Below, piece by piece: positions 2,027 through 11,433 of a stretch of 64,000 bases of DNA. Location of the stretch: NCBI RefSeq assembly GCF_003024235.1, contig NZ_KZ679086.1, forward strand, positions 62,001-126,000, given 5' to 3'. Origin of the DNA: Arenimonas caeni. Its GTDB lineage: Bacteria; Pseudomonadota; Gammaproteobacteria; Xanthomonadales; Xanthomonadaceae. Within the stretch, counting starts at the first letter, position 1. Each line of letters begins with the position of its first letter. The notes under the pieces are model-generated. The model had not been told where the DNA came from. It did not search any database and worked only from the letters and a program-made list of their open reading frames with translations. The position numbers and the translations under genes were made by a program.

Positions 2027-5000
2027 ATGGCGAAGGAAAGCGCAGCGCCACGGGACCTGGCGGGCGCCGGCCACCGTGCCGGCCAGCTGGTCGTGCCCGC
2101 GGCCATCGTCCTGCTGGCGATGGCTTTGCTGGAGCTGTTCCTGCCGCGCTGGCTGCCCGGCGGCTGGCCCGCCTGGCAGATGGTGCTGATGCCGGTCCTG
2201 GTGGCCAGCGGCATGCTGCTTCGCGCCGACCGCCGCCCCTCGATGCTGCTGGCCTGGGCCCTGGCGCTGGCCAGCACGGCGGTGGTGCTGATCGCCTGGC
2301 CGACCTCCGATCCGGAGCTGGTGCGCACGCCCGCCCCCTGGCTGGCGGCGATGGCGGGCTCGATCGGCGTGGGTGCCCACGTCGGTGGACGGGCCCCGGC
2401 GGTGGCCGTGGTGGCGCGCGCGCTGGGTGGCCTGCTGCTGGCGATGGCGGCGCTGTCGGCCGCCAGCCTGCATGATCCGGAGCCGGCGCCCGGCATGGCC
2501 CTGGGCCTGGCCGGCACGATCACCACCCTCGGGCTCGGCGCCTGGCTGCTGGGACGCGACCTGGTCGACCACAGCCAGCGGGTGATGCGCGTGGCCGCGG
2601 GCATGCTCGGCGGGCTGTCCCTGCTGGTGATGCTGGGCTGGTGGATGCACTTGTCCTACATCGTGCAGGGCGGCACCGACTACGTGCCCATGCAGTTCAA
2701 CACCGCCACCTGCGCGCTGCTGGTGGCGGTCTCGCTTCGCCTCCTGGCCGACGGGCGCCGCAACCTGGCGCTGCTGCCGCTGCTGCCGGTCGTGGCCCTG
2801 TGCGTGGTCAGCCTGCTCGAGGAATACGCCGGCTGGAGCATCGGCGCCGGAGAATGGCTGGTGCGGCACCAGATCGTCGCCGAGGGCATCGTTCCCGGCC
2901 GCATGGCGCCCAACACCGCGGTCTCGTTCCTGCTTGCCAGCCTCGGCATCGCGCTGGCGCCGTCCGGCGGCGAGGCCGGTGCCGCGCGATGGTCGGCGAC
3001 CTGGGCCTGTGGCTTCGTGGCGACCGTGATCGCGGTGATCGTGCTGGCCGGCTACCTGTTCGGCATCCCGGCGCTGCGTGGCTGGGGTTCGCAGACGCCG
3101 ATGGCGCTGATGACCAGCGTGTCGCTGCTGGTGGTCGGCCTGGGCCTGGGCTTCGGCGGCGCGGCCTACCGGCGCGACCTCCGCAAGCCGGTGGCCTGGA
3201 TGCCGCTGGCGGTGGCGGCGGCGGCGATCGCCGTCTCGGTGATGGCCTGGTATGCCATCGACCGGGACCAGGCGGCCAGCCGCGCCGCCACGCTGGCCAG
3301 GCAGGCCGAACTGACCGAGCAGGCGATCGCGGCCGGCATCCTCGATCGCCGCAGTGCCCTGCGACGCATGGCCGAGCGACTGTCCGCCATGCACGACGAG
3401 CGCCAGGCGGCGGCTTCGTTCGACCTCGATGCCGGCATCTACCTGCGCGATTTCCCCAGCCTGGTGACGCTGATGTGGACCGACCGGTCCACCCGCGTGC
3501 AGCGGCAGTTGCGGCGGGATGGGGAGGGCGTGATCGTGCTGGGGCGGCGCCTGGACTTCGACCCGGAGCGCATGGCGCTGTTCGACCGCGCCCGCGAGGG
3601 CGGCGCGCCGGTGGAGTCGCTGCCGATGACCCTGCTCGACAGCGACGTCGGGGAGCTGCTGGTCGCGCCGATCGTGCGCGACGGCGCCACGACCGGTTTC
3701 GTGGTGGCGGTGGTGCGGTACCAGGCCCTGTTCCCGGCACTGCTCGCGGCCACCGGCGACGAGCATCCGCTGGAGATCCGCCACGAAGGGCGGGTGCTCT
3801 ACAGCCGCGGTTCGCCGGGTCTGCAGGCCGATGCCCATGTGCGCGGCGTCGCGGTCTCCGGCGGACGCCTCAAACTGTGGATGTGGGCGGAGCCACAGGC
3901 GCCGGCGCCGCTCGGCAAGCTGCTGCTCTTCTCAGGGCTGGCCACCGGCGGCCTGCTGGCCCTGGCGCTGAGGCTCGCGGGGCTGGCGCGCCTGCGGGCC
4001 GACGAGGCGGAAAGCCGCGGCCGCGAGCTCGCCGCGCGGATCGACGAAGTCGAACAGGTCCGCGAGTCCGAGGCCCGGGCCCAGAGCGAACTGTCCTCCG
4101 TGTTCGAGAGCATCAGCGATGCCTTCTACACGCTCGACCGCGAATGGCGTTTCGTGTTCGTCAATCCGCGTGCGGAGGCGTTGCTGCAAAAACGCCGTGA
4201 CGAACTGGTCGGGCGGGTGGTCTGGGAGTTGTTCCCGGCCACGCTTGGCACCGTGGTCGAGCGCGTGTTCCGGGCCGCCGCGAAGGACGGGCGCCCGGGC
4301 GAGTTCGAGGTGTACTTCGAGCCGCTCGCGAGCTGGTTCTCGGCCCGCGTCTACCCGCATCCGCATGGCCTGGCGGTGTATTTCCAGGACATCAGCGACC
4401 GCAAGCGCGCCGAGGCCGATGCGCGGCGGGCGCTTGCGGCGTCCGAGCGTGCCAAGCGCCTTGCCCGGCTCGGAAACTGGGAGTACGACCTGGCCAGCGG
4501 CCGGATGGAGTGGTCCGAGCAGGTGTTCCGGATCTTCGGCATCAGCGAGGGCCTGCCCACGCCGAGCCTGGCCGAACTGGTCCAGCGCGTGCACTTCGAG
4601 GACCGCGGGCGCGTGCAGGCGGCGCAGGGGCGCCTGCATCGTGGCGAGGAGGAACTGGATATCGAGTACCGCATCCTCAGGCCCGATGGCGAGACCCGGT
4701 ACGTGCGCGAGATCGGCACCCTGCTGCGCGATGCCTCCGGCCAGCCGGTATCGGCGACCGGTGCGATCCAGGACATCACCGAGCGCCACCATTCAGAGGA
4801 TGCGCTGCGCGAACTCTCGCGCCGCCTCGAGCAGTCCCTGGTGATGAACCGCCTGGTGCTCGAGAACTCCCTGGACGTGATCTGCGTGATCGATGCCAAT
4901 GGCCGCTTCCAGCAGGTCAGCAACGCCTGCCAGCCGCTCTGGGGCTATGCGCCGGGCGAACTGGTGGGGCGCGCCTATTTCGACCTGGCGCATCCGGAGG

Positions 5001-11433: not shown

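What the first reader, a model, noticed from the sequence alone, without database searches (positions are those of the whole stretch)
2027..11433. Giant PAS/GAF kinase, lone receiver and REC-LOV-GGDEF-EAL protein form one candidate signalling system
Three adjacent genes are linked by order and by a GTGA overlap: a 2148-residue membrane kinase with seven PAS and two GAF domains but no receiver, a lone Rcp1-like receiver, and a c-di-GMP enzyme that itself has a receiver. The kinase could phosphorylate both receivers, so one membrane sensor would feed a branched output: a diffusible receiver and c-di-GMP turnover. I know of no described system with this exact set.
Basis: partly seen in the sequence, partly recalled or inferred. 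Interest (0 to 1): 0.7.

Follow-up and report, generated by a model that had tools for sequence, protein, structure and literature searches.

The report
One sensor kinase, two matched receivers
A bacterium (Arenimonas) carries a three-gene signalling cassette, found in many bacterial groups, in which one membrane sensor probably controls both a small messenger protein and a blue-light-sensing enzyme that breaks down the signal molecule c-di-GMP.

Summary
In detail: kinase 2027-8473 (2148 aa, His1929; seven PAS and two GAF stretches, no receiver), Rcp1-like receiver 8540-9007 (Asp70), and REC-PAS-LOV-GGDEF-EAL protein 9004-11433 (Asp59), the last two overlapping by GTGA. The set is not peculiar to this genome. 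Kinase, Rcp1-like receiver and a protein beginning with the same receiver subtype stand in this order in 55 of 80 named loci, 44 of 69 outside Arenimonas. The third gene's output is swapped: GGDEF(-EAL) in 21, a kinase in 30, unclear in 4. In most Arenimonas cassettes and several other gammaproteobacteria it carries LOV with the adduct cysteine. Both receivers share an acidic pair at the start of helix 1: 44/44 and 40/44 non-Arenimonas trios, 0/34 control receivers, and only these two of the genome's 37 receiver domains. Best reading: one kinase, branched output, the enzyme probably a c-di-GMP phosphodiesterase gated by phosphorylation and blue light. Phosphotransfer is untested. The parts are known kinds; nine searches of open papers showed no description of the cassette. 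New variant of a known kind.

The parts
2027..8473 (+). membrane sensor histidine kinase, 2148 aa, no receiver
   Evidence: core 74-85% identical in 12 other genomes of the genus
2087..3253 (+). multi-helix membrane region (about residues 21-409)
   Evidence: hydropathy, eight segments; model mean pLDDT 74.6
3254..3901 (+). probable periplasmic sensor domain between membrane helices, double-Cache/CHASE-like (about residues 410-625)
   Evidence: Foldseek best hits KinD sensor domain 4jgo/4jgq, then TlpA and PctA ligand-binding domains; CHASE below Pfam's cut-off; boundaries read from the model
6017..6448 (+). GAF domain 1
   Evidence: GAF_2 residues 1331-1474
6941..7366 (+). GAF domain 2
   Evidence: GAF_3 residues 1639-1780
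7787..8455 (+). HisKA + HATPase_c core, His1929 codon 7811-7813
8540..9007 (+). Rcp1-like single-domain receiver, Asp70 codon 8747-8749; alternative start GTG 8528
9004..11433 (+). REC-PAS-LOV-GGDEF-EAL protein, 809 aa, GTG start overlapping the receiver stop
9025..9369 (+). REC domain, Asp59 codon 9178-9180
9769..10158 (+). LOV domain, GRNCRFLQ, adduct Cys308 codon 9925-9927
10165..10623 (+). GGDEF domain (motif AGDEF, residues 464-468)
10687..11391 (+). EAL domain; E591, N650, E682, D712, D713, K733, E769, Q789 invariant in the 19 aligned rows (window plus 18 relatives)

Best explanation
A two-component cassette with one kinase and two receivers. The kinase senses a periplasmic cue (double-Cache/CHASE-like domain) and internal cues (PAS/GAF) and autophosphorylates on His1929 [inferred from family]. 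It passes phosphate to Asp70 of the small Rcp1-like receiver and to Asp59 of the REC-PAS-LOV-GGDEF-EAL enzyme, which share one helix-1 signature [signature shown; transfer inferred]. In the enzyme, REC phosphorylation and blue-light adduct formation at Cys308 act along connecting helices (115-148, 250-267, 375-389, 547-566 in the model) on the GGDEF-EAL unit [inferred]. The net output is most likely c-di-GMP hydrolysis by EAL, with the AGDEF domain regulatory or a weak cyclase [inferred]. The Rcp1-like receiver is a diffusible second branch, or a phosphate sink, with unknown target [inferred].
For: Trio order in 55 of 80 named loci. In 120 genomes (own and relatives), 18 of 21 REC3 genes lie in one cluster with an Rcp1-like receiver gene, 16 of them directly beside it, and 17 of 21 clusters also hold the kinase. 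In 299 genomes of the phylum, of 15 REC3 hits of 100 bits or more, 11 lie within 300 nt of an Rcp1-like receiver and 14 within 5 kb. Helix-1 acidic pair shared by both receivers. Kinase-REC3 and kinase-Rcp distances correlate 0.74 and 0.65 over 44 trios, 0 of 2000 permutations as high. REC3-type and Rcp-type receivers fused in one 290-aa frame in two Gallionella MAGs. LOV and EAL key residues intact. The one solved chain matched by the REC3 profile at 1e-18 is the dual-sensor kinase PPHK, 6oap.
Against: No phosphotransfer data. The shared signature could be ancestral, or serve loop geometry rather than docking; REC3 from a different trio agrees with a receiver almost as well (35%) as its own (39%), and around the phospho-acceptor Rcp resembles control receivers more than REC3. 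25 of 80 named loci do not score as full trios. REC3 hits below 100 bits are beside an Rcp receiver in only 22 of 58 cases. Only 38 of 85 Rcp places have a kinase match (E<=1e-45) adjacent, 15 of them with REC3 too. A. fontis has no LOV, and 4 of the 12 LOV-bearing genomes of the genus read in L001 and L006-L016 have Leu for the usual signalling Gln, so light control is not universal. AGDEF beside an intact EAL leaves the sign of the c-di-GMP output open.
Confidence: 0.58

Rival explanations
1. Linear pair plus passenger: the kinase serves only the Rcp1-like receiver (Cph1-Rcp1 style, recalled); the enzyme is controlled by LOV/PAS and another kinase, and is merely co-expressed.
For: Kinase-Rcp pairs without a REC3 gene are common in relatives: 38 of 85 Rcp places have a kinase neighbour, 15 of these with REC3 adjacent. 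Weaker REC3 hits are often away from an Rcp receiver (36 of 58 not within 300 nt).
Against: Strong REC3 hits are mostly clustered with the receiver (18 of 21; 14 of 15 within 5 kb); the helix-1 pair is in both and in none of the genome's other 35 receiver domains; the kinase-REC3 distance correlation is the highest of the three.
Confidence: 0.2
2. The kinase serves the enzyme; the Rcp1-like receiver is a phosphate sink or adaptor that sharpens or ends the signal and has no target of its own.
For: Single-domain receiver with no output domain, encoded between the other two; REC3-type and Rcp-type receivers fused in two Gallionella MAGs.
Against: The receiver also occurs with a kinase and no REC3 gene nearby (23 of 38 kinase-paired places), so it must do something without it.
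Confidence: 0.15
3. Sequential relay: kinase to Rcp1-like receiver to REC3 through an unlinked HPt protein (RcaE-RcaF-RcaC style, recalled).
For: Two receivers downstream of one kinase.
Against: No HPt family hit in any of the three proteins; the genome was not searched for HPt proteins.
Confidence: 0.05

Closest known systems
Cph1-Rcp1 / phytochrome-type receivers (Rcp1, RcpA, RcpB, RphyB)
   Same: Receiver subfamily: PDB hits 4zyl, 1k68, 1i3c, 1k66 at E 2e-33 to 4e-29; SHDLQEPL-type kinase next to the receiver gene (pairing recalled)
   Different: The kinase is a membrane multi-PAS/GAF protein without a phytochrome module hit; a third gene is added
CfcA - CfcR / CfcD of Pseudomonas putida (PMC4951495, passages read)
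   Same: One kinase proposed to phosphorylate two REC proteins: CfcR, which is REC-PAS-GGDEF-EAL, and CfcD, whose REC is 48% identical to CfcR's
   Different: In the passages read no Rcp1-like receiver and no LOV are mentioned; cfcR is not in the cfcABCDE cluster; CfcR acts as a cyclase
CdgK - CdgS of Anabaena (PMC9927289, passages read)
   Same: Large CHASE/PAS/GAF membrane kinase co-transcribed with a REC c-di-GMP enzyme whose activity rises with phosphorylation
   Different: Kinase is a hybrid with REC1, REC2 and Hpt; CdgS is a GGDEF cyclase; no lone receiver in the passages read
PPHK dual-sensor kinase of Leptolyngbya (PDB 6oap; Shin et al. 2019: title and citing passages seen; paper not held)
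   Same: Best solved match of the third gene's REC profile; by name and title a kinase responsive to phosphorylation and light with OR logic
   Different: Bilin photosensor instead of LOV, kinase instead of GGDEF-EAL; its gene neighbours were not checked
SL2 (LOV-GGDEF-EAL, Synechococcus elongatus; review PMC8846402, passages) and RprR (Cache-PAS-LOV-GGDEF-EAL, Ralstonia; PMC12802281, passages)
   Same: LOV in front of GGDEF-EAL; SL2 described as a blue-light-dependent phosphodiesterase
   Different: No receiver domain described in the passages read, and no kinase-receiver cassette
LvrA-LvrB of Leptospira (PMC13269768, passages)
   Same: A kinase phosphorylates an N-terminal REC that controls a second enzyme; a model for the REC-kinase third genes
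   Different: Output is a kinase; no Rcp1-like receiver described in the passages read

Membership tests
Rcp1-like single-domain receiver | Sequence match over the whole length including the C-terminal YW..V.LP stretch | tested here: met
   Y139, W140, V144, L146 and the acceptor D70 invariant in 26 rows
Rcp1-like single-domain receiver | Phosphorylation by the adjacent SHDLQEPL kinase | not testable with these tools
   needs biochemistry
LOV photoreceptor | Adduct Cys in GxNCRFLQ and the usual N, N, Q positions (positions recalled) | tested here: met
   GRNCRFLQ, RNY, FWN, VGIQ in the window protein; absent or altered in some relatives
LOV photoreceptor | Flavin binding and photocycle | not testable with these tools
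   needs spectroscopy
YtvA family blue-light photoreceptor (NCBIfam NF052652) | Score over the curated cut-off | tested here: not met
   148.2 bits against 250: LOV homology, not membership
EAL c-di-GMP phosphodiesterase | Conserved metal and substrate residues E, N, E, DD, K, E, Q (list recalled) | tested here: met
GGDEF diguanylate cyclase | GG(D/E)EF active-site motif | tested here: inconclusive
   AGDEF at 464-468; activity cannot be decided from sequence
Cph1-type phytochrome system | Kinase carries a bilin-binding phytochrome module | tested here: not met
   PAS and GAF families only, no phytochrome family hit at E 0.01
Kinase - Rcp1-like receiver - REC-effector cassette (defined here) | Three genes in order, kinase core >100 bits, Rcp receiver, REC3 domain >=45 bits, close spacing | tested here: met

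The most novel reading that the evidence does not exclude
A phylum-crossing signalling cassette with a 'two-receiver code': one kinase reads the same helix-1 signature on a diffusible Rcp1-like receiver and on a swappable REC-effector (c-di-GMP enzyme or second kinase), so that evolution exchanges outputs and photosensors (LOV in gammaproteobacteria) behind a fixed phosphotransfer interface.
Probability: 0.5. Interest if true: 0.65.

Novelty: new variant of a known kind. Interest (0 to 1): 0.5.

Why it matters
It turns a single-genome guess into a testable, widely distributed cassette: one sensor, two receivers with a matching signature, and interchangeable outputs. It would give a natural case of branched phosphotransfer whose specificity can be read from sequence, and a c-di-GMP enzyme that integrates phosphate and blue-light inputs. 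It also gives many lone Rcp1-like receivers a genomic context.

Tried and rejected
Donor of the Arenimonas cassette: the 21 non-Arenimonas receivers aligned are about equally distant (60-66%); the closest named non-Arenimonas receiver is 71% (L045, a Desulfobacteraceae MAG, not a full trio). The receiver tree groups Arenimonas only weakly (78/96, open) with the LOV-bearing gammaproteobacterial clusters; branches are long and the bootstrap had not settled. 13 of the 17 relatives' receivers used fall in another starred group (99/97). No origin is claimed.

Hybrid fusions: among the ORFs of L001-L114 and the window, no frame holds a kinase core (>100 bits) with a strong Rcp or REC3 hit (>60 bits), so there is no fusion proof of a kinase-receiver pair.

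Cyanobacterial third genes as PPHK orthologues: the two tested match CckA and LvrB kinases; 6oap is not listed at E 1e-15. Orthology is not claimed, only kinship of the REC profile.

PADLOC: no match at 1e-5. Distance correlations can come from shared history and show co-inheritance, not interaction. Residue coevolution was not attempted: too few trios. A lone-REC3 survey in other phyla and a census of HPt proteins were not done.

Full report
WHAT IS THERE. The three genes are real and as described. The kinase starts at ATG 2027, 84 nt after a tRNA-Thr (1867-1942), and is 2148 aa long. Pfam finds seven PAS and two GAF stretches, HisKA and HATPase_c, and no receiver; NCBIfam's PAS model also gives seven stretches. 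Its first 409 residues hold eight hydrophobic segments, and another lies at about 629-650. A model of residues 1-690 (mean pLDDT 74.6, nine sequences) shows a mixed alpha/beta domain at about 410-625 between these. Foldseek's best solved matches are the KinD sensor domain entries (TMt 0.72-0.78, E about 1e-5), then chemoreceptor ligand-binding domains, so a double-Cache/CHASE-like periplasmic sensor is likely. The receiver (8540-9007) is Rcp1-like. The enzyme (9004-11433) is REC-PAS-LOV-GGDEF-EAL. The eight EAL motif residues that I looked for are present and invariant in 19 aligned rows (window plus 18 relatives); the cyclase motif reads AGDEF. Its model (mean pLDDT 86.9, pTM 0.43) has connecting helices between the domains; the arrangement of domains is not certain at that pTM.

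CONSERVATION IN GENUS AND ORDER. The window lies in an Arenimonas genome (name inferred from the best named hits). In 120 genomes (own and 119 relatives), 21 places match the enzyme's REC at E<=1e-14. 15 of 21 stand in the order kinase-receiver-REC3 with neighbours within 300 nt: 13 of the genus (own included), G048 (same family, other genus) and G093 (same order, other family). Two more have the order REC3-kinase-receiver (G084, with about 0.7 kb between kinase and receiver, and G100), and one has REC3-receiver without an adjacent kinase hit (G107). Of the last three, G085 and G101 show no cassette kinase or receiver in the 12 kb read; G098 has a receiver-like frame of about 105 aa and 41 bits beside it. 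So 17 of 21 clusters are complete in some order, and 18 of 21 hold REC3 and receiver, 16 of them side by side. 14 of the 26 other genomes of the genus lack the trio. A tRNA-Thr(tgt) is upstream in 7 of 9 Arenimonas or Arenimonas-like loci scanned; not in L035, nor in L037, whose contig begins inside the kinase frame; nor in L135 and L136 of other genera. The cassette thus sits at a stable place in the genus.

CONSERVATION ACROSS PHYLA. One search returned the 80 best named loci for the receiver, of 423 found: a biased sample by design. Eleven are Arenimonas or Arenimonas-like (L035-L044, L048; one is labelled a Rhizobium MAG and one a Lysobacteraceae MAG). 55 of 80 show kinase core, receiver and REC3 in order (gap limits -60 to 400 and -60 to 600 nt); 44 of the 69 others do. 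Labels of trio loci include Cyanobacteriota, Nitrospirota, Planctomycetota, Verrucomicrobiota, Bacteroidota, Thermodesulfobacteriota and Pseudomonadota (MAG labels can be wrong). The 25 misses: 8 with kinase and no REC3, 5 with REC3 and no adjacent kinase, 7 with neither, 5 near a contig end. Some misses hold the parts in another order or spacing (L051, L087, L095, L108). Output of the third gene in the 55: GGDEF or GGDEF-EAL 21 (L040 is split in two frames), kinase 30, other or truncated 4. Pfam on seven third genes confirmed the exchange: REC-PAS-kinase-REC (three), REC-kinase, REC-GGDEF-EAL, REC-PAS-GGDEF-EAL, REC-LOV-GGDEF-EAL-REC. Two of 27 plasmid records with a match were opened and show the same row: PAS protein, response regulator, diguanylate cyclase in Deinococcus taeanensis; PAS kinase, response regulator, hybrid kinase in Paludisphaera borealis.

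A LESS BIASED TEST. I searched 299 genomes of the phylum, drawn evenly, own included, with profiles of REC3 and of the receiver. Of the 15 REC3 places of 100 bits or more, 11 lie within 300 nt of a receiver on the same strand and 14 within 5 kb. Of the 58 weaker ones, 22 lie within 300 nt and 29 within 5 kb. Of 98 receiver places, 33 have REC3 adjacent. So close REC3 relatives mostly sit with the receiver, more distant ones about half the time, and the receiver often occurs without REC3. At most 12 to 14 candidates per genome were scored, so weak places may be missing. I read the regions of the 14 strong REC3 places other than the window's. Two genomes of another family (G255, G290) carry the exact set with LOV GRNCRFLQ; the third gene of G255, the one put to Pfam, has a second REC at its end. 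In G163, G301 and G191 the 'unlinked' REC3 is the second of two REC3 genes behind one receiver.

LOV. The window protein keeps the LOV motif, adduct Cys308 and the Asn, Asn and Gln positions (roles recalled). Ten of the eleven Arenimonas-like named loci keep the Cys motif; A. fontis (L044) shows no LOV domain. Of 12 LOV-bearing genomes of the genus read in L001 and L006-L016, four (L007, L008, L010, L011) have Leu where the signalling Gln is usual. Outside Arenimonas the Cys is present in L135, L136, L137, L138, L139, L183 and L184, with motif variants in L135, L136 and L139. Among the 44 non-Arenimonas named trios no third gene has a LOV hit above 60 bits; L072, not a full trio, has Ala for Cys.

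WHY ONE KINASE AND TWO RECEIVERS. Helix 1 of receivers is a main kinase-docking element (recalled). In 44 non-Arenimonas trios the Rcp receiver and its own REC3 agree at 39% over 12 helix-1 columns against 20% in the other columns; 34 other receivers from 23 of the same loci agree there with Rcp at 19% and with REC3 at 15% (Mann-Whitney p about 1e-9, rows not independent). REC3 from a different trio agrees almost as well (35%), so this is a class signature, not pair-by-pair matching. Against it: around the phospho-acceptor Rcp agrees better with the control receivers (0.37-0.43) than with REC3 (0.22-0.25), and the Rcp-REC3 alignment is loose between helices 1 and 3, so the 20% is rough. The core of the signature is an acidic pair after the aspartate cluster: 44/44 Rcp, 40/44 REC3, 0/34 controls. 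In this genome PF00072 finds 37 receiver domains; the pair occurs in the two cassette receivers and in none of the other 35. Kinase and REC3 distances correlate at 0.74, kinase and Rcp at 0.65, Rcp and REC3 at 0.64, with 0 of 2000 permutations as high. In two Gallionella MAGs a REC3-type and an Rcp-type receiver are fused in one 290-aa frame. The kinase core has no second match in the genome at E<=1e-45, and the receiver's next best match in the genome is at 5e-11.

MECHANISM. Most likely the kinase phosphorylates both receivers. The enzyme is then a two-input c-di-GMP enzyme (phosphate on REC, light on LOV), probably hydrolysing. PPHK, the only solved chain matched by the REC3 profile at 1e-18, is by its name responsive to phosphorylation and light, and its paper's title states OR logic (seen; the paper is not held). 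SL2 is described as a blue-light-dependent LOV-GGDEF-EAL phosphodiesterase (review PMC8846402, passages). CfcA of P. putida is proposed to phosphorylate two REC proteins, one of them REC-PAS-GGDEF-EAL (PMC4951495, passages). The genome has 15 other EAL places and 3 PilZ places, so the cassette would feed a larger c-di-GMP network. What the Rcp1-like receiver acts on is unknown.

NOVELTY. Nine searches of the held open papers listed no paper that I recognised as describing a kinase - Rcp1-like receiver - REC-effector cassette. I read passages of eight papers, none in full; most subscription papers are not held, so it may be described elsewhere. The parts are known kinds; the combination, its spread, its swappable output and the shared receiver signature are what seems new here.

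Noticed in passing
window 15720-16829 (+): A GAF-GGDEF diguanylate cyclase gene lies about 4.3 kb downstream of the cassette.
   Followed up: no
window 11506-11901 and about 11898-12818 (+): A rhodanese-like gene and an arginase-family gene directly follow the cassette on the same strand.
   Followed up: no
L039, L040 (Arenimonas): The first about 385 residues of the window's kinase find no match in these kinases, while the sensor domain and the rest do: the membrane input end is variable.
   Followed up: partly
L044 (Arenimonas fontis): The third gene keeps REC, PAS, GGDEF and EAL but shows no LOV, a possible natural light-blind version.
   Followed up: partly
L075:10454-11323, L093:10445-11314 (Gallionella MAGs): Fused double receiver, REC3-type followed by Rcp-type, directly behind a separate Rcp gene.
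   Followed up: no
   Followed up: no
window 24972-26561 (+): AbgT-family transporter gene, with tryptophan 2,3-dioxygenase sequence in the long frame just upstream.
   Followed up: no
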